Source of the DNA: Brachyspira hampsonii 30446
GTDB lineage: Bacteria > Spirochaetota > Brachyspiria > Brachyspirales > Brachyspiraceae
DNA length: 64,000 nt
Direction of reading: 5' to 3'
NCBI RefSeq assembly: GCF_000316195.1
Contig: NZ_JH994110.1
Span: 851,631-915,630, forward strand
In this document: piece after piece, positions 29,509 to 38,025 of the stretch
Layout of the letters: each line of letters begins with the position of its first letter
How positions within the stretch are numbered: the first letter of the stretch is position 1
The notes under the pieces: model-generated
What the model was told of the DNA's origin: nothing
What the model saw: only the letters and a program-made list of their open reading frames with translations
Databases searched by the model: none
Program-made: the position numbers and the translations under genes

Positions 29509-30984
29509 ATGCTTTTTAATTCTACTGATTTTTTGATATTTTTTCCTATAATGCTTATTTTATATTGGATATTTCCAAAAAAATTAAGATATATATGTCT
29601 TTTTATAGCTAGTTATATATTTTATATGTTTTGGAATCCAAAGTATGCATTGTTAATGGGAACATCTACTGTAGTAACTTTTTTAAGCGGTATATTAATA
29701 GAAAAATTAAAATATAAAAGAATAGTTGTAGCTTTCAGTTTTATAATAAATATTGCAATACTAGTATTTTTTAAGTATTTTGACTTTTTACTATTAAATA
29801 TAAATATGATTTTATCAGCATTTAATATAGAGTTGATAGAAAAACCTTTTGATATAATTTTACCTGTAGGGATATCTTTTTATACATTTCAGGCATTAAG
29901 CTACACTATAGATGTTTATAGAGGTGAAATAAAATCTGAAAAAAATATTATTAAGTATGCATTGTTTGTATCATTTTTCCCGCAGTTAGTGGCAGGTCCT
30001 ATAGAGCGTTCAAAGCATTTGCTTGGACAGATTCAGAATATGGATAAAATAAAAAGATTCGATTATCAAAGAATAACTGAAGGACTTATTTTAATGCTTT
30101 TCGGTTATTTTCAGAAAATGGTAATAGCAGACAGAGCGGCAATACTAGTAGATACTGTTTTTAATAGATATTATATTTATAACTCATCAGAATTATTATT
30201 ATCAGCATTACTTTTTGCGGTGCAGATATACTGTGATTTTGCTAGCTACTCACTTATAGCAATAGGAACTGCTAAAGTTATGGGAATAGATTTAATGGAG
30301 AATTTTAACACTCCGTATTTTTCCAGAAGCATAAAAGAGTTTTGGGGCAGATGGCATATATCATTATCTACTTGGTTTAGAGATTATCTTTATATACCTT
30401 TAGGCGGAAACAGATGCTCAAAATTAAGAAGAAGTTTTAATATATTATTGACATTTTTAGTAAGCGGACTTTGGCATGGAGCTAATTTTACTTTCATAGC
30501 TTGGGGTGCTATTCATGGAATATGCTATCTAATAGAAGATATTACTTCAAAGTTTAGAAATAATGTTTTAAATAAATTTGGTGTAAAGGTGAAAAGTTTC
30601 AGCTTTAAACTTCTTGAGGTGATTATCACATTTATAATAGTAGATTTAGCTTGGATATTTTTTAGGGCAGAAACTATACATGATGCTTTTTATTATATAG
30701 AGAGAATGTTTACTAAAATAGATTTATGGCGTTTATTTGACGGATCTTTATATAAATTGGGATTAGACAGTTTTGAAATGAATATACTTATAATATCTTT
30801 GATAGTGTTATTTTTGGCAGATATTATAAAATATATAAAGAAAGAAACTATTTATGAGTTTTTAAAAAATCAATGCTTGTATTTCAGATGGGCTGTAATA
30901 TTTTTCTTGTTATTTTTTATAATCATATACGGCAAATACGGTGCAGGCTTTGATCCTAAGCAATTTATATATTTTCAGTTTTAG
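29509..30984 (+). CDS. MBOAT (AlgI/DltB-like) membrane O-acyltransferase, intact copy
   Basis: 491 residues, about 10-12 transmembrane helices, family-typical length. IKEFWGRWHISLSTWFRDYLYIPLGGNR and SGLWHGANFTFIAWGAIHG contain the conserved histidines; the second is the catalytic one in this family. Closely similar to the broken gene at 26489, including the N-terminus MLFNSTDFLIFFPIMLILYW. Likely O-acetylates a cell-surface or secreted polysaccharide using a cytoplasmic acyl donor. The ATG at 29509 has no strong ribosome binding site, unlike the first copy. Partner SGNH protein follows at 31401 after a repeat-containing spacer. Confidence 0.9.
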   Translation: MLFNSTDFLIFFPIMLILYWIFPKKLRYICLFIASYIFYMFWNPKYALLMGTSTVVTFLSGILIEKLKYKRIVVAFSFIINIAILVFFKYFDFLLLNINMILSAFNIELIEKPFDIILPVGISFYTFQALSYTIDVYRGEIKSEKNIIKYALFVSFFPQLVAGPIERSKHLLGQIQNMDKIKRFDYQRITEGLILMLFGYFQKMVIADRAAILVDTVFNRYYIYNSSELLLSALLFAVQIYCDFASYSLIAIGTAKVMGIDLMENFNTPYFSRSIKEFWGRWHISLSTWFRDYLYIPLGGNRCSKLRRSFNILLTFLVSGLWHGANFTFIAWGAIHGICYLIEDITSKFRNNVLNKFGVKVKSFSFKLLEVIITFIIVDLAWIFFRAETIHDAFYYIERMFTKIDLWRLFDGSLYKLGLDSFEMNILIISLIVLFLADIIKYIKKETIYEFLKNQCLYFRWAVIFFLLFFIIIYGKYGAGFDPKQFIYFQF

Positions 30985-31400
30985 GAGGTATTGTATAATA
31001 TAAGAGTTTTATTAATTATATTTTATACTAAAAAAATTTTAAGTTTATAAATTTTTTGTTCAACTTTTTCCCGCCGCACGCTTCGCGAGGCGGACTTCGT
31101 CAAAGTTGCTGCCAGAGGCACGCTTAGCGAAAGTGCAAGTATTAAAATTATTATCAAATCGTACTAATTATTTTTATATGTATGATAAACTATTAAATTT
31201 AGTATAAAATATAAGAGTTAGAGATTACTGAATGTGCATACTTTTTTATGGCAATTCATAGGACTTAATACAGTTGTAAAATACTTTAGTTTTGTGAATC
31301 ACGCAGAGCGTGGCACGACTGTGAATCCATGCAGATATTTGACAAATTAGATTTATGTATATATTGGGATTAAATATAAAAATAATAGGCTGTTTATAAT
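30985..31400. repeat. Spacer with GC-rich repeat fragments
   Basis: 416 bp between the MBOAT and SGNH genes. It contains TTCAACTTTTTCCCGCCGCAC (31049-31080 region) followed by GCGAGGCGGACTTCGTCAAAG, and near 31300 CACGCAGAGCGTGGCACG. The same modules occur at 8563, 49380, 52838 and 52999. No gene seen. Confidence 0.65.
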
Positions 31401-32831
31401 ATGATAAAAAACACATTAAAAATTATTTGCTTTATAGCTATATTTATTATATTACTCTGGACTTCCAGCAGAGTATTAAGATTTAAAAATGAGAATGGTA
31501 TATATCAGGGCGACAGTTTTTATGAACAGAAAACTAACACCATAGATTTACTTATTCTTGGCAGCAGTCATGTACACTATAATATTAATCCAGCTGCTTT
31601 GTATAATAAGTACGGAATTGCAGCTTATAACTTTACATCTGGAAGCCAGCCTATATGGAGCACTTATCATTATTTAGTTGAAGCATTAAAATATCAAAAG
31701 CCAAAATTAATTGCATTAGAGTCTTATATCATAGCAGCAAGCAGAACCAATGTTGTAGATTATCAGATAGTAGCAGCTACTTATGCATTAAGATGGTCTC
31801 AAAACAGAATAAACTCTTTAAAAATTACCGCTGCAGATAGATTTGATGAGTTTATTAACCCAATGTATAGATATCATAACAGATACAAAGATTTAAAAGA
31901 TGAAGATTTTGTTCCTTATGCTAATAATTATAATCATTATAAATATTTTAAAGGTTATTCTTTTCATAATAAAACATTTCCTGTTAAAGAGCCTAATATA
32001 AAAAATATAAAAGATACTCTGCCTTTATTAGAACAGCAGGAAACTTATTATAGAAAAATACTAGAGCTTGCAAAAACTAATAATATACCTATAGTAGTGA
32101 TAGCTTCTCCTTTTCCTATGACTGATGATGAGGCTAGACATTTTAATATGGTAGGTGATATTGCAAAAGAGTATGATGTTCCTTTTATGAATTTTAATCA
32201 TTATTATGATGATTATGATTTAGATTTTTGGACTGATTATAATGATGCAGGACATTTAAATTATAAAGGCGTAGAAAAATATACTTCATTTTTAGGAAAA
32301 TATTTAAAAGACAATTTTGATTTGCCAGACAGAAGAGGAGACAGTAATTATAATACTTGGGAGAAAAATGCTTTATACGAATACAATAGAGTTTATGACA
32401 TGAATCTTAGAGACATAAACAATATACATAATTATATAACAAAAATAACTAATCTTAATAATTATACTATAGTAATAAACATGCTTGGAGAATACAGTAC
32501 AAATGATAGCGTAGTAAAAGGTATTTATTCCAATTTTAATATTACTAATGAAATGTATACTAATAATATTTCTTATGTCATAGACAAAAATAAATTAGTA
32601 TTTTCTTCAATGGGTAAAACTAATTATCTTTATCATAAAGAGCTTAATAAATACAATGATTTAGTAGTTGATAGCGGAAACAGAATAATGATAAGCAGGA
32701 GCAATTTAAGAAAAACTACTAATGGGGTTAATATAATAGTGTATGATAATATAACCTCTGAAGTAGTTGATTTCTTTGGTTTGGATTATACTAATAATAA
32801 ATTGATTGAGACAATAGAAAGAGATTATTAA
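31401..32831 (+). CDS. SGNH/DltD-AlgJ-like acyl-handling protein, copy 2
   Basis: 476 residues, paralogue of the 27980 protein in every block: N-terminal anchor (8-24), SSRVLRFKNENG, GSSHVHYNINPAALYNKYGI with GSSH at 54-57, YYRKILELAKTNNIPIVVI, DAGHLNYKGVEKYTSFLGKYLK, NFDLPDRRGDSNY. Expected to work outside the cytoplasmic membrane with the intact MBOAT protein encoded just upstream. The 416-bp repeat-filled gap suggests this module was once tighter, like copy 1, and was opened by an insertion. Confidence 0.75.
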   Translation: MIKNTLKIICFIAIFIILLWTSSRVLRFKNENGIYQGDSFYEQKTNTIDLLILGSSHVHYNINPAALYNKYGIAAYNFTSGSQPIWSTYHYLVEALKYQKPKLIALESYIIAASRTNVVDYQIVAATYALRWSQNRINSLKITAADRFDEFINPMYRYHNRYKDLKDEDFVPYANNYNHYKYFKGYSFHNKTFPVKEPNIKNIKDTLPLLEQQETYYRKILELAKTNNIPIVVIASPFPMTDDEARHFNMVGDIAKEYDVPFMNFNHYYDDYDLDFWTDYNDAGHLNYKGVEKYTSFLGKYLKDNFDLPDRRGDSNYNTWEKNALYEYNRVYDMNLRDINNIHNYITKITNLNNYTIVINMLGEYSTNDSVVKGIYSNFNITNEMYTNNISYVIDKNKLVFSSMGKTNYLYHKELNKYNDLVVDSGNRIMISRSNLRKTTNGVNIIVYDNITSEVVDFFGLDYTNNKLIETIERDY

Positions 32832-32994
32832 TTAAATCCATCTTAATATTTAGTAAATTAATTTCTACAAATAAAACATATTTATATTATCGGTTGTATA
32901 TATAGCTTTAATGCCAACTATATATAGTTTACATAACATATTTACTCCTTATAATATTAAATAATTAATCAAGAATAAATTTAAGGAGTTTTTT
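32832..32994. repeat. Upstream duplication, copy 1
   Basis: About 160 bp upstream of the first cystatin-like gene, very similar to 34614-34779 upstream of the third: shared blocks TAATATTTAGTAAAT, AAAACATATTTAT, ACCAACTATATATAGTTTA (contains an 8-bp palindrome) and AATCAAGAATAAATTTAAGGAG. Promoter and leader appear to have been copied with the gene. Confidence 0.8.
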
Positions 32995-33570
32995 ATGATG
33001 GAAGGAAGTTTTGAAATAAATGTAAAACAAAAAAATGAAATACCTGATGAATTAGTAGGTATTTTTGAAAGAGGAATTAAGGGATTCTATGGAGCAGGCA
33101 GAGAATTAATGCTTTATTTAGGAGAACAATTAGTTAATGGAAAAAATTATGCATATATAACAAGATGTACACCTGCTACTCTTCATCCTGTACCTTATTA
33201 TGAACTAATTATAATATATGTTGATAGAGAAGGAAGAGCTTCTATTGGAAGAAGGGAAACTATAATTGAAAGTTCTCAAATTGGTACTGTAGGAGGAATA
33301 ATTTGTTCTAGTTCATATGAAGCCTCTATACAAGAAAATGAATCTGCTGAGTCTAAACATTTACTTGATTTATTTGAGAAAGCTGTTTCTAACGTTTCAG
33401 ATTTTTATTATAAAGCTGATCTTTATTTGGGTCATAAAGTAGTTCAAGGCTGTAAATATTATTATCTTGCAGAGGCTAAAGATAAAAAAGGAGAAAATAG
33501 TATTAAATTACTAGAAATATATTCTTTTATGGACAAAATTAAAGTTTCAGGAACAAAAGATATATTATAA
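32995..33570 (+). CDS. Double cystatin-like-motif protein 1
   Basis: 191 residues, no signal peptide, so probably cytoplasmic. Two tandem copies of a segment of about 80 residues. Repeat 1: GRELMLYLGEQLVNGKNYAY then YYELIIIYVD. Repeat 2: GGIICSS, FEKAVSNVSDFYYKADLYLGHKVVQGCKYYYLAEAK. The pattern helix, strand, Q-x-V-x-G, N-Y strand and, in repeat 2, a preceding glycine pair resembles cystatins (QVVAGxNY and the N-terminal Gly). That likeness is from motif reading; identity is not proven. Five genes of this kind lie in a row, each with AATTTAAGGAG before the ATG. Confidence 0.7.
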   Translation: MMEGSFEINVKQKNEIPDELVGIFERGIKGFYGAGRELMLYLGEQLVNGKNYAYITRCTPATLHPVPYYELIIIYVDREGRASIGRRETIIESSQIGTVGGIICSSSYEASIQENESAESKHLLDLFEKAVSNVSDFYYKADLYLGHKVVQGCKYYYLAEAKDKKGENSIKLLEIYSFMDKIKVSGTKDIL

Positions 33571-33590
33571 TTATTATTTAAAAAATATTG

Positions 33591-33632
33591 AACTTATGTT
33601 ATTTAACTTTATTAAATAGCATAAGTTTTTTT
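33591..33632 (+). terminator. Terminator after cystatin-like gene 1
   Basis: AACTTATGTTATTTAA / TTAAATAGCATAAGTT with T-run; one mismatch. Confidence 0.8.
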
Positions 33633-33688
33633 ATTATAAAATAAAAGTCTTTATAATTTTATATTAAAATAAATTTAAGGAGTTTTTT

Positions 33689-34324
33689 ATGATGGCAGGA
33701 AGTTTTGAAATAGATGTTCTTCAAAAAAATGCAGTAAGTGAAGAAATACAATCCATATTTAATGAAGCTACAAATATGCAAGGTGTACGCAGAGAATTAA
33801 TGCTTTATTTAGGAAGACAGTTGGTTCATGGGTATAATTATGCTTATATTTCAAGAAGCGAAATTGTTGTACCTGATTCTGTAGCATATTATGAATTAAT
33901 AATAGTAAATGTTACTTATGATAATGAAAGTAGAAAAATCAATGATTTAAAAGCAACTACTATAATTAAAAACGCGGAGAAAGGCATGTTTGGAGGAATA
34001 ACATGCTCTAAATCTGATGAAGCTATTATAAGAATAATTGATTCAGTATATGCTAATGAATTAATAAGCTTATTTAATATTGCTGTAGGTAATACTAAAA
34101 ATATAAAAGAAGGAACAGAAGAAGAAATGGAATTGGTTAAAAAAGTTAAAGAATATGATTATGAAGTTGAACTATACTTAGGAGATAAACCTGTTACAGG
34201 TATTGATTATTATTATATAGCAAAAGTTCAAAATATAGAAACTAAAGTAAAAGGTATTCAATTAGTAACAGTTAATAATCCTCCAAGCGGAACTAAAGTT
34301 GTAGAAATAAAAGATATATTATAA
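33689..34324 (+). CDS. Double cystatin-like-motif protein 2
   Basis: 211 residues, longest member. Repeat 1 GVRRELMLYLGRQLVHGYNYAYISRS keeps QLVHG; repeat 2 VELYLGDKPVTGIDYYYIAKVQ has PVTG in the weaker second motif. An insertion of about 20 charged residues (KNIKEGTEEEMELVKKVKEYD) precedes repeat 2. C-terminus VVEIKDIL is shared with all members. Most diverged of the five. Followed by its own terminator. Confidence 0.7.
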   Translation: MMAGSFEIDVLQKNAVSEEIQSIFNEATNMQGVRRELMLYLGRQLVHGYNYAYISRSEIVVPDSVAYYELIIVNVTYDNESRKINDLKATTIIKNAEKGMFGGITCSKSDEAIIRIIDSVYANELISLFNIAVGNTKNIKEGTEEEMELVKKVKEYDYEVELYLGDKPVTGIDYYYIAKVQNIETKVKGIQLVTVNNPPSGTKVVEIKDIL

Positions 34325-34346
34325 TTATAATACTACAAAAATAATG

Positions 34347-34389
34347 AACTTATACTGTATTAATTAAATAATGCAGTATAAGTTTTTTT
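34347..34389 (+). terminator. Terminator after cystatin-like gene 2
   Basis: AACTTATACTG / CAGTATAAGTT outer stem with TATTA/TAATG inner pairing, then TTTTTTA. Similar in sequence to the terminators after genes 1 and 5. Confidence 0.8.
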
Positions 34390-34432
34390 ATAATCTAAAA
34401 CTCAGCATCTAGTTCATTATATTAAACTTGTT

Positions 34433-34613
34433 TAAAAATTAATTTCATTTATTAATTGTACATCATGTCCGCCTAACTCTTTTTTGACATGGCAGGTTTC
34501 AGCAGGCTAAGGATAGTATACTTATTATTAAAAGTTTATGAAAAATTGTTTTTATAATTGATAAATTACTAAATTTTTATATAAACTTGTCAAGTAGTTT
34601 TTAAACAAATCTG
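34433..34613. mobile_element. Diverged TIR element between cystatin-like genes 2 and 3
   Basis: Left end TAAACTTGTTTAAAAATTAATT and right end AACTTGTCAAGTAGTTTTTAAACAAATCT are worn forms of the TAGACTTGTTTCAAAA ends, including the right-subterminal TTGTCAAGTA seen in the 48643 copy. About 180 bp, non-coding. Confidence 0.6.
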
Positions 34614-34779
34614 TTAAATCCAGCCTAATATTTAGTAAATCAATTTCTACATATAAAACATATTTATGTTATCGGTTGCATATTTCCTTTTAATACCAAC
34701 TATATATAGTTTACATAACATATATACTCTTTATAATCTTATAATAATTAATCAAGAATAAATTTAAGGAGTTTTTATA
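34614..34779. repeat. Upstream duplication, copy 2
   Basis: Counterpart of 32832-32994; see shared blocks there. Ends in the same AATTTAAGGAG ribosome binding site. Confidence 0.8.
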
Positions 34780-35349
34780 ATGCTAGGAAGTTTTCAAATA
34801 AATGTAATACAAAAAAATAAGATATCTAAGGAATTAAAAGATATTTTTGATGAAGGAACTAATTTATTAGGAGTTCATAGGGAATTAATGCTTTATTTAG
34901 GAGAACAAGTAGTTAATGGTATAAATCATGCATTTGTAGCTAGAAGCGAAGTTATTATTCCTAATCCTAGACCCTATTATGAATTAGTAATAATAAATGT
35001 TGATGGAGAAGGAAGAACTTGTCTTTTAGAAACAGAAACTATCTTAAAAGCCTCAGAGTTTCCAATCGGAGGGGTAACATGCTCTAAAGAAGATGAAGCT
35101 GCTATAAGAATAATTGATTCTGCAGAGGCTCGTAATTTAATTGAATTATTTGACAAAGGTATGCATAATGTTTTAGGTCTTGACTATGAAGCTGAGCTTT
35201 ATTTGGGACAAAAAATAGTTAGGGGAGGAAATTATTATTACCTTGCCGAGGCTAAAAGTGTAGAAAATAAAACAAAAAGCATTAAATTAGTAGTAATTAA
35301 TCTTTTTATGGATAAAGTTCAGGTTGTAGAAATAAAAGATATATTATAA
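34780..35349 (+). CDS. Double cystatin-like-motif protein 3
   Basis: 189 residues. Repeat 1 GVHRELMLYLGEQVVNGINHAFVARSEV; repeat 2 YEAELYLGQKIVRGGNYYYLAEAKS. GGVTCSKEDEAAIRIIDSAEARNLIELFDKGMHNVLG links them and recalls the cystatin helix preceded by glycine. No signal peptide and no membrane segment. Upstream region copied from gene 1. No clear terminator follows; it may be co-transcribed with gene 4. Confidence 0.7.
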   Translation: MLGSFQINVIQKNKISKELKDIFDEGTNLLGVHRELMLYLGEQVVNGINHAFVARSEVIIPNPRPYYELVIINVDGEGRTCLLETETILKASEFPIGGVTCSKEDEAAIRIIDSAEARNLIELFDKGMHNVLGLDYEAELYLGQKIVRGGNYYYLAEAKSVENKTKSIKLVVINLFMDKVQVVEIKDIL

Positions 35350-35450
35350 TTGTACTATTAAATAGTAATTAATAAATATAAGTTTTTGATGACAATAAAT
35401 CATACATATTTTACTGATATATAAAGAATAAATTTTTAAGGAGTTTTTTT

Positions 35451-36029
35451 ATGATACATACATACGGCGGTTTTGAAATCGATGTAAAACAAAAAAATGA
35501 AATATCTAAAGAGCTTGAATATATTTTTAGAAATGGAACTCATCTATTAGGAGTTCGCAGAGAATTAATGCTTTATTTAGGAAAACAAGTAGTTCATGGT
35601 ATAAATTATGCATTTGTAGCTAGAAGCGAAGTTATTATTCCTAATCCTAGACCTTATTATGAATTAATAATAATAAATGTTAATGAAGAAGGAAAAACTT
35701 GTATTGTAAGAAGAGAAACTATATTAAAAGCTTCAGCGTCTACAATTGGAGGCATAATATGTTCTAAAGAAGATGAAGCTCCTATAAGAATAATTAATTC
35801 TACAGAAGCTAATAATCTTCTTAAATTATTTGATAAAGGTATGCATAAGGTTTTAGGTATTGACTATGAGGCTGAACTTTATTTGGGACACCAAACAGTT
35901 AAAGGAATGAATTATTATTATCTTGCTGAGGCTAAAAGTTTAGAACCTGAAACAAAAAGTATTAAATTAGTAGTGATTAATCTTTTTATGGATAAAGTTA
36001 AAGTTGTACAAATAAAAGATGTATTATAA
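35451..36029 (+). CDS. Double cystatin-like-motif protein 4
   Basis: 192 residues, nearest relative of protein 5 (both start MI-x-x-YGGFEI). Repeat 1 GVRRELMLYLGKQVVHGINYAFVARS; repeat 2 YEAELYLGHQTVKGMNYYYLAEAKS. Ribosome binding site AAGGAG 8 bp upstream. Recent duplication is suggested by long stretches identical with gene 5 at the DNA level. Confidence 0.7.
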   Translation: MIHTYGGFEIDVKQKNEISKELEYIFRNGTHLLGVRRELMLYLGKQVVHGINYAFVARSEVIIPNPRPYYELIIINVNEEGKTCIVRRETILKASASTIGGIICSKEDEAPIRIINSTEANNLLKLFDKGMHKVLGIDYEAELYLGHQTVKGMNYYYLAEAKSLEPETKSIKLVVINLFMDKVKVVQIKDVL

Positions 36030-36160
36030 TTATTGCAGTAAACTTATTATATTAAAAAAATTAATATAATAACAAATAAGACATATTTTAATAGTTCTAT
36101 ATTTTAGTTTACATAATATAGAAATTGTTTATAAAGAATAAATTTTTAAGGAGTTTTTTT

Positions 36161-36739
36161 ATGATACCTATATACGGCGGTTTTGAAATCAATGTAAAAC
36201 AAAAAAATAATATATCTGAGGAGATTAAAGATATTTTTGAGAAAGGAACTCATTTATTAGGAGTTCGCAGAGAATTAATGCTTTATTTAGGAAAACAAGT
36301 AGTTCATGGCATGAATTATGCATTTATATCTAGAAGCGTACCTGCTACTCTTAATCCTTTACCTTATTATGAATTAATAATAATAAATATTAATGAAACA
36401 GGAAAAACTTGTATTGTAAGAAGAGAAACTATATTAAAAGCTTCAGAATCTGCAATCGGAGGTATAATCTGTTCCAAAGAAGATGAAGCTCCTATAAGAA
36501 TAATTAATTCTACAGAAGCTAATAATCTGCTTAAATTATTTGACAAAGGTATGCATAAGGTTTTAGGTCTTGACTATGAGGCTGAACTTTATTTGGGTCA
36601 TCAAATACATCATGGCTGTAATTATTATTATATTGCTGAAGCTGAAAGTTTAGAACATAAAACAAAAAGTATTAAATTAGCAGTTATAAATCTCTTTATA
36701 GATGAAGCTAAAGTCGTAGAAATAAAAGATATATTATAA
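36161..36739 (+). CDS. Double cystatin-like-motif protein 5
   Basis: 192 residues from the ATG at 36161, chosen because it follows the same AATTTTTAAGGAGTTTTTTT leader as gene 4; the frame is open 12 codons further but that part matches no paralogue. Repeat 1 GVRRELMLYLGKQVVHGMNYAFISRS; repeat 2 YEAELYLGHQIHHGCNYYYIAEAES, where the second motif has lost its valine. The N-terminal third of repeat 1 matches protein 1 after the motif (SVPATLNPLPYYELI versus CTPATLHPVPYYELI), suggesting gene conversion between array members. Confidence 0.7.
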   Translation: MIPIYGGFEINVKQKNNISEEIKDIFEKGTHLLGVRRELMLYLGKQVVHGMNYAFISRSVPATLNPLPYYELIIININETGKTCIVRRETILKASESAIGGIICSKEDEAPIRIINSTEANNLLKLFDKGMHKVLGLDYEAELYLGHQIHHGCNYYYIAEAESLEHKTKSIKLAVINLFIDEAKVVEIKDIL

Positions 36740-36763: not shown

Positions 36764-36808
36764 AACTTATACTGTTTAAGCAAATTAAACAGTATAAGTT
36801 TTTTTTAT
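36764..36808 (+). terminator. Terminator after cystatin-like gene 5
   Basis: AACTTATACTGTTTAA / TTAAACAGTATAAGTT, perfect 16-bp arms, followed by TTTTTTTATTA. Confidence 0.9.
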
Positions 36809-37024: not shown

Positions 37025-38025
37025 ATGATTAAAAATATTTTATTGATATTGACATTAGTACTTGTATCTTGTTCATCAGAAATTGTATCACCTAATAATG
37101 ATAATGCAGATACGACTATGCCTTCATTACCCGCAGAAGAAGAATTAATAGCAAATACAGCATAGATATAGGTTTGGACGATGCTGTAATAAGGCAAAAG
37201 ATAGAAGAAAATCTAAAAGCCTATTATGAAGAGATGGGTTCATATAGATTAATATTTACAGGTGTTCCTAAAGATTATACTCAAAGCACAGCAGAATCGC
37301 TTTCTATTTTAACATTAAAATCAGCTATGAAAGTTAATAATGCTAAAAATATAGATATTGATATACGAAATATTGATTTTCAGGATAATACCATAAAAAC
37401 AGGTATGTTTTCTGGTGAAACTATTGATGATACTATAAATCTTAATTTTATATTTCCAGAAGATAAGATAAAAATAATAGCAAGTATGTCTTTTGATAAT
37501 TTATATAACATAAGAAAAATAATATTACCAGATTCTGTAACTTCAATAGAAAATGATGCATTTAATAATTGCCAAAATATAGATAAATTAACATTAGGTA
37601 ATGGACTTAAAACTATAGGAGATATGTCTTTTTTATATAATAATTCATTGAAAGAAGTAGTGATACCAGATTCTGTAACATCAATAGGAATGGGAGCATT
37701 CAGCGGAGCACCGATAGAAACATTAAAGTTATCTTCTTCATTGGAATCAATAGGAGATGCTGCCTTTGACACTATTTATATCACAGAACTCACAATACCA
37801 GCTTCAGTAAAGTCTATAGGGATGCAGGTATTTGCATTTTCTCAGAAATTAACTACATTTATTTATTTAGGAAAAACTCCTAGTGATATAACCACTATAG
37901 GTCAAAATATATTTTATGGATGCGATAAACTTAAGACATTGATAATACCTAATGCATTAGATGAAACAGATCCGGCTTGGAAAACTTTCTTAGGCGGAGC
38001 TTTTACTTATATAAGAAAACAGTAA
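37025..38025 (+). pseudogene. BspA-type leucine-rich-repeat lipoprotein with a frameshift
   Basis: The ATG at 37025 opens a lipoprotein signal (LLILTLVLVSC, Cys16) and a linker of about 30 residues, then stops at 37163. A second frame, one base off, continues from IDIGLDDAVIRQKIEENL to 38025. Residues in the second part form about five LRR_5 units: VTSIENDAFNNCQNIDKLTL, LKTIGDMSFLYNNSLKEVVI, VTSIGMGAFSG, LESIGDAAFD, VKSIGMQVFAF. One inserted base near 37160 would restore a single lipoprotein of about 333 residues. Such proteins are surface-exposed adhesin-like factors in oral and gut bacteria. Could be decay, phase switching or a sequence error. Confidence 0.75.

What the first reader, a model, noticed from the sequence alone, without database searches (positions are those of the whole stretch)
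32995..36739. Array of five paralogues each with two cystatin-like (QxVxG) segments
Repeat 1 of every protein keeps Q-(L/V)-V-(N/H)-G followed by NY or NH; repeat 2 keeps a weaker form, preceded by a glycine pair and a helix. That order matches the cystatin hairpin (QVVAG-x-NY) and its N-terminal glycine. Bacterial cystatin-like proteins are rare, and a cytoplasmic-looking tandem array is unusual. Possible roles: inhibitors of own or host cysteine proteases, or a convergent fold with another function.
Basis: partly seen in the sequence, partly recalled or inferred. Interest (0 to 1): 0.74.

Follow-up and report, generated by a model that had tools for sequence, protein, structure and literature searches.

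The report
Tandem bacterial cystatin-like protease-inhibitor genes
A gut spirochaete (Brachyspira) carries five neighbouring genes, each encoding two copies of the fold and binding loop that animals and plants use to block papain-like proteases; its genome has none of the usual target enzymes, so the target is probably foreign or not a protease at all.

Summary
Five adjacent genes of a Brachyspira genome encode leaderless 189-211 aa proteins, each with two homologous domains. Domain 1 keeps Q-[LV]-V-[NH]-G-x-N-[YH] in all five; domain 2 keeps QxVxG in one. An AlphaFold2 model (pLDDT 93, pTM 0.90) shows the cystatin order, strand-helix-four strands, twice, with the motif at the strand 2-3 hairpin. 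Of the solved structures compared, cystatins rank first (tarocystatin from its papain complex, Z 9.9, 1.8 A over 77 residues). Independently, a sequence profile of the domains ranks cystatins first in the PDB (E 5e-4). So the cystatin/stefin reading holds for fold and, with good support, for kinship. The genes are under purifying selection and form one clade. They share ancestry with a two-domain lipoprotein held by 14 of 26 genomes of the genus, where domain 2 instead carries the invariant hairpin (QVVKG; QAVKG in this genome). Bacterial stefins, Brachyspira named, were reported in 2009; the array, the lipoprotein form and the swap of the conserved domain appear new. No C1, C10, C11 or C13 peptidase was found in this genome, which argues against 'own' papain-like targets. 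Inhibition itself is inferred.

The parts
32995..33570 (+). gene A, 191 aa, two cystatin-like domains, leaderless
   Evidence: orthologous to L012:742-1305 and L013
33689..34324 (+). gene B, 211 aa, most divergent copy, insertion before domain 2 strand 2
   Evidence: orthologous to L008:2287-2910
34780..35349 (+). gene C, 189 aa; the modelled copy
   Evidence: (pLDDT 93.3, pTM 0.90)
35451..36029 (+). gene D, 192 aa; the only copy with QxVxG in both domains
36161..36739 (+). gene E, 192 aa; ATG 36161 preferred to the listed TTG 36125
   Evidence: AAGGAG just upstream of ATG 36161
33127..33141 (+). gene A domain 1 hairpin QLVNG
33818..33832 (+). gene B domain 1 hairpin QLVHG
34906..34920 (+). 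gene C domain 1 hairpin QVVNG, at the beta2-beta3 turn of the model
35586..35600 (+). gene D domain 1 hairpin QVVHG
36296..36310 (+). gene E domain 1 hairpin QVVHG
33436..33450 (+). gene A domain 2 hairpin KVVQG (degenerate)
34187..34201 (+). gene B domain 2 hairpin KPVTG (degenerate)
35212..35226 (+). gene C domain 2 hairpin KIVRG (degenerate)
35892..35906 (+). gene D domain 2 hairpin QTVKG
36602..36616 (+). gene E domain 2 hairpin QIHHG (degenerate)
32914..32955 (+). gene A promoter: CCAACTATATATAGTTTACATAA (palindrome over the -35) and TATAAT
   Evidence: the 23-mer occurs only twice in the genome at up to 3 mismatches
34696..34737 (+). gene C promoter, identical 23-mer
33580..33632 (+). 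terminator-like inverted repeat plus T run after gene A
   Evidence: (family D11), seen
34346..34385 (+). terminator-like hairpin after gene B
36764..36800 (+). terminator-like hairpin after gene E

Best explanation
These are bacterial two-domain proteins of the cystatin/stefin kind, expanded to five leaderless copies. Proposed mechanism: the N-terminal glycine segment and the QxVxG hairpin of domain 1 form the cystatin wedge that plugs the active-site cleft of a papain-like cysteine protease. Domain 2 in most array copies is a degenerate, mainly structural or second-specificity domain, whereas in the lipoprotein paralogue domain 2 carries the invariant wedge and domain 1 varies. Because this genome has none of the tested target families, the target is most likely foreign (host cathepsins, gut protozoa or neighbouring bacteria): met at the cell surface by the lipoprotein, and in the cytosol or after cell lysis by the array proteins. 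Shown here: genes, domains, predicted fold, kinship by profile, clade structure, purifying selection, absence of tested target families. Inferred: protease binding, which protease, where, and the division of labour between domains. Confidence is about 0.9 for cystatin-type fold and kinship, and about 0.5 for the whole statement including inhibition of a foreign cysteine protease.
For: Fold: both domains modelled at high confidence with the motif at the beta2-beta3 turn. Structure: 3ima tarocystatin (from its papain complex) Z 9.9, 1.8 A, 77 aligned; potato multicystatin 4lzi spans both domains; most of the top 40 entries are cystatins or cystatin-derived scaffolds. Sequence: the profile of 16 domains finds multicystatin 5e-4, Fasciola cystatin 1e-3, Dictyostelium cystatin-A2 0.017 over the whole domain; the six best hits are cystatins. 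Across these divergent domains only Q, V and G of QxVxG are 90% or more conserved. hhalign: domain 1 vs domain 2 97%, vs bacterial relatives 98%, bacterial relatives vs eukaryotic cystatins 72%; column-shuffled and reversed controls at most 2.6%. A single-domain spirochaete lipoprotein found with that profile (L093) scores 21.5 bits with Pfam Cystatin (E 2.9e-4; cut-off 22.2). Selection: dN/dS below 1 for every orthologous pair. Exogenous target: no C1, C1_2, C10, C11, C13 in the own genome.
Against: No inhibition data. Pfam Cystatin does not hit the array proteins at E up to 1 nor the own-genome lipoprotein at E up to 10, and gives only 14 bits for lipoprotein L019. hhalign against four eukaryotic cystatins gives only 32-35% for the Brachyspira domains alone. 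Leaderless proteins do not obviously meet an external protease. Several residues away from the hairpin (E33, R53, E66, C99, E104 of the gene C core) are invariant in all 29 sequences, more so than the domain 1 hairpin, which points to a constraint beyond a cystatin wedge. The PW of the second hairpin of type 2 cystatins is not evident in the sequence. Other peptidase families were not searched.
Confidence: 0.5

Rival explanations
1. Cystatin fold, different job: the array proteins are cytosolic binding scaffolds (regulators, partner-binding or assembly proteins) that kept the hairpin as a structural or recognition loop and inhibit no protease, as happened with monellin, latexin and many vertebrate cystatins.
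For: The own genome lacks the tested target families; proteins are leaderless; invariant residues E33, R53, E66, C99, E104 lie outside the hairpin; the domain 2 hairpin is degenerate in most copies. PMC2784779 notes loss of inhibition as the prevailing trend in vertebrate families.
Against: Q, V and G of the hairpin are the only columns 90% or more conserved across divergent relatives, and the two paralogue types each keep one full QxVxG domain: array type 14/15 in domain 1, lipoprotein 14/14 in domain 2. That fits a functional loop better than a structural one.
Confidence: 0.3
2. Inhibitors of an endogenous cysteine peptidase that the family searches missed, guarding the cytosol or envelope.
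For: Leaderless copies would meet such an enzyme; the lipoprotein gene lies 119 nt upstream of a conserved VWA-domain protein, so a local partner is conceivable.
Against: C1, C1_2, C10, C11 and C13 are absent from the own genome and from all 21 good-quality genomes of the genus. No peptidase family was recognised in the array-adjacent proteins or the lipoprotein neighbours scanned.
Confidence: 0.15
3. Chance motif in an unrelated helix-plus-sheet fold (NTF2-like or other), that is, convergence of a short loop.
For: Foldseek ranked an NTF2-like protein (3ub1) first by E-value; Pfam gives no credible hit.
Against: VIA-align gives 3ub1 only Z 6.0 against 9.9 for a cystatin, with TM-scores under 0.3 and rmsd near 18 A; an independent sequence profile finds cystatins first.
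Confidence: 0.05

Closest known systems
Bacterial stefins (Kordis and Turk 2009, PMC2784779)
   Same: Leaderless cystatin-superfamily proteins in bacteria; Brachyspira is one of the genera named, and Spirochaetes are listed as stefin-positive, cystatin-negative.
   Different: The passages read describe no five-gene two-domain array and no lipoprotein form. Which Brachyspira protein they counted could not be checked, as the supplement was not readable here.
Type 1 cystatins (stefins A and B) and phytocystatins, MEROPS I25
   Same: Predicted fold, QxVxG hairpin followed by N-Y, glycine before strand 1, no signal peptide in the array form.
   Different: Two domains per chain, one degenerate; not recognised by Pfam Cystatin; inhibition unknown.
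Multicystatins (potato multicystatin 4lzi)
   Same: Tandem cystatin domains in one chain; 4lzi aligns over both domains.
   Different: Two domains here, and conservation of the motif concentrates in a single domain, a different one in each paralogue type.
Latexin and fetuin-B (two cystatin-like domains, metallopeptidase inhibitors)
   Same: Two cystatin-like domains; matched by structure.
   Different: QxVxG is conserved here; relation to their metallopeptidase mode was not tested.

Membership tests
Cystatin/stefin superfamily (MEROPS I25, Pfam PF00031) | Cystatin fold: helix across an antiparallel sheet, order beta-alpha-beta-beta-beta-beta | tested here: met
   Models of an array protein and of the lipoprotein; 3ima Z 9.9-10.1 at 1.8 A. 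Prediction, not an experimental structure.
Cystatin/stefin superfamily (MEROPS I25, Pfam PF00031) | QxVxG in the first hairpin (beta2-beta3) | tested here: met
   Domain 1 of all five array proteins; 14/15 leaderless (domain 1) and 14/14 lipoproteins (domain 2)
Cystatin/stefin superfamily (MEROPS I25, Pfam PF00031) | Conserved glycine ahead of strand 1 | tested here: met
   Gly1 of the aligned core in 28 of 29 sequences; GG before domain 2 strand 1
Cystatin/stefin superfamily (MEROPS I25, Pfam PF00031) | Second hairpin with PW (cystatins) or its stefin counterpart | tested here: inconclusive
   No PW by eye in alignment A2; stefins lack PW too, and the loop was not superposed residue by residue
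Cystatin/stefin superfamily (MEROPS I25, Pfam PF00031) | Passes the Pfam PF00031 cut-off | tested here: not met
   No hit for array proteins; 14.1 bits for lipoprotein L019; relative L093 21.5 bits against a cut-off of 22.2. A library threshold rather than a biological criterion, so they are called cystatin-like here and not Pfam members.
Cystatin/stefin superfamily (MEROPS I25, Pfam PF00031) | Sequence kinship by profile | tested here: met
   Domain profile vs PDB: the six best hits are cystatins, best E 5e-4; hhalign above controls
Cystatin/stefin superfamily (MEROPS I25, Pfam PF00031) | Inhibits papain-family cysteine proteases | not testable with these tools
   needs a biochemical assay
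Stefins (type 1: leaderless) | No signal peptide | tested here: met
   for the array; the lipoprotein paralogue has one. Hydrophobicity heuristic, no trained predictor available.
NTF2-like fold | Structural match over a whole domain | tested here: inconclusive
   3ub1 Z 6.0, 3.5 A over 79 residues, well below the cystatins

The most novel reading that the evidence does not exclude
A bacterium without detectable papain-like enzymes expanded a cystatin-fold gene into five leaderless copies for a purpose other than inhibiting papain-like proteases, and in the surface lipoprotein and cytosolic lineages the conserved hairpin moved to opposite domains.
Probability: 0.3. Interest if true: 0.6.

Novelty: new variant of a known kind. 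Interest (0 to 1): 0.45.

Why it matters
Bacterial cystatins and stefins have been predicted since 2009, and a 2012 review said more experimental data were needed before their role could be judged (PMC3594739); I found no functional test of one in the library searched. Brachyspira offers a clean case: a natural set of five array copies plus a lipoprotein, a genus in which 8 of 26 genomes lack the family altogether, and no endogenous target family found. A papain/cathepsin assay would settle whether gut spirochaetes make protease inhibitors against their surroundings, and paralogues that conserve the loop in different domains allow a matched test of what the loop does.

Tried and rejected
Viral and plasmid origin: no relatives of the array in viral contigs, and tblastn found none in plasmids (array query) or phages (lipoprotein query); PHROGs weak only. 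More distant two-domain relatives do lie on Bacteroidota plasmid records. Pfam and NCBIfam naming of the array: nothing credible. Whether Pfam Cystatin marks other Brachyspira proteins: no match over the cut-off in 26 genomes; the best had stops inside and was not a relative. A decayed sixth copy in the 455-nt gap 34325-34779: no coding remnant seen; the gap holds the gene C promoter. A regulon for the 23-mer operator-like sequence: only the two array sites in the genome. G041 and G110 hits of the domain profile (L091, L092) showed no convincing QxVxG-bearing relative and were set aside.
Full report
What is there. The window lies in a Brachyspira genome (3.04 Mb; the same-genus relatives fetched are named Brachyspira). 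At 32995-36739 five + strand genes encode proteins of 191, 211, 189, 192 and 192 aa. The last was listed from TTG 36125; the conserved AAGGAG box places its start at ATG 36161. Pairwise nucleotide identity between copies is 65-88%, dN/dS is below 1 for all orthologous pairs (about 0.17-0.70), and the copies pair with orthologues in other species, so the array is older than those species splits (tree). Genes A and C each have a good promoter match with an identical 23-mer over the -35 element that occurs nowhere else in the genome at up to three mismatches; terminator-like hairpins follow A, B and E.

Is the motif real. QxVxG occurs in domain 1 of all five. A random shuffle has it in 1-4% of cases per protein. 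Because the copies are related, the better evidence is that across 16 divergent domains, including other spirochaetes and Bacteroidota, the only columns 90% or more conserved are the Q, V and G of this motif.

Fold. AlphaFold2 with 29 relatives gives pLDDT 93.3 and pTM 0.90, with E4-9, H15-24, E30-42, E46-56, E64-72, E78-88 and the same order again in domain 2. QVVNG is residues 41-45, at the beta2-beta3 turn; the domain 2 motif is 143-147, also at the turn. The lipoprotein model is the same (pLDDT 93.6). Against the PDB, tarocystatin from its papain complex ranks first by VIA-align (Z 9.9, 1.8 A, 77 aligned; and Z 10.1 for the lipoprotein), and most other entries listed are cystatins, stefins or cystatin-derived scaffolds. 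Foldseek's first row by E-value is an NTF2-like protein with poor superposition (TM 0.25, rmsd 17.9 A), which VIA-align places at Z 6.0. Among viral models the first row is a cystatin-domain protein, at a weak E-value (0.04). AlphaFold was trained on cystatins, so the fold is not independent of the motif; the sequence-profile evidence is.

Kinship. A profile of 16 domains searched against 177,635 PDB sequences finds cystatins in the first six places (E 5e-4 to 0.09). Profile-profile comparison links domain 1 to domain 2 (97%), both to the bacterial relatives (97-98%) and those to eukaryotic cystatins (72%), with shuffled and reversed controls at most 2.6%; the eukaryotic set was four sequences, of which the cystatin C and oryzacystatin letters were written from memory and only the stefins were checked against the PDB. 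L093, a single-domain spirochaete lipoprotein found with the same profile, reaches 21.5 bits with Pfam Cystatin, just under its cut-off. Pfam itself does not recognise the array proteins.

Relatives. Of 26 Brachyspira genomes 18 have the family. From the rows of that search, 14 have a two-domain lipoprotein (signal and lipobox, for example IISC) and eight have the leaderless form (one to five copies). The leaderless forms are one clade (100/99). The lipoprotein gene lies about 120 nt upstream of a secreted VWA-domain protein that all 26 genomes have. In L036, L039 and L042 the lipoprotein sits at the locus that in this window holds the array, downstream of the same GDSL-like gene, which suggests a shared origin at that site. 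Outside the genus, single- and two-domain relatives occur in other spirochaetes (L057, L058, L059, L093) and on Bacteroidota plasmids (L065, L066). Domain 1 keeps QxVxG in 14/15 leaderless but 5/14 lipoproteins; domain 2 in 5/15 leaderless but 14/14 lipoproteins (Fisher p 0.002 and 0.0002, not corrected for relatedness).

Targets. No C1, C1_2, C10, C11 or C13 peptidase reaches E 0.01 in the own genome or in any of the 21 good-quality genomes of the genus; two lower-quality genomes are exceptions (G023 one C1 gene, also seen weakly by C1_2; G020 two C10). The C10 search rang in no control genome, but did find clear C10 genes in G020. Other cysteine peptidase families were not tested, so 'no endogenous target' is limited to these five.

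How it most likely works. The cystatin wedge of domain 1 would plug a papain-like active site of a foreign protease. Shown: genes, fold prediction, kinship, selection, distribution. Inferred: binding, target, place of action, and the split of roles between lipoprotein and array. The main rival is a cystatin scaffold with another job, for which the leaderless location, the missing targets and the invariant residues away from the hairpin (E33, R53, E66, C99, E104) speak.

Known or new. Kordis and Turk (PMC2784779) reported bacterial stefins, named Brachyspira among the genera, and proposed inhibition of host proteases. The kind is therefore known. I found no description of the five-gene two-domain array, the lipoprotein form, or the reciprocal conservation of the two domains in the papers searched; that library lacks most subscription journals.

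Noticed in passing
37026-38025: A small ORF with a lipobox signal (MIKNILLILTLVLVSCSS...) ends just before the BspA-type LRR ORF 37174-38025; it looks like a frameshifted lipoprotein LRR gene. An intact homologue is L035:5972-6940.
   Followed up: partly
L038:5679-7346 and orthologues: A secreted VWA-domain protein, present in all 26 genomes of the genus, lies directly downstream of the lipoprotein cystatin in most species; function unknown.
   Followed up: partly
G005:C1:650475-650903, G005:C14:112938-113282, G005:C5:185585-185821: Truncated or split cystatin-like copies in a close relative, suggesting ongoing loss and movement of array genes.
   Followed up: no
L099, L100 (G020:C250): Two C10 (streptopain-like) peptidase genes on a single contig of a Brachyspira assembly with 7% contamination; could be foreign sequence.
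   Followed up: no
29509-32831: MBOAT acyltransferase followed by a weakly GDSL-like protein, conserved upstream of the array across species.
   Followed up: no
34786-35346 (core residues E33, R53, E66, C99, E104): Invariant residues away from the cystatin hairpin in all 29 family members; unexplained.
   Followed up: no
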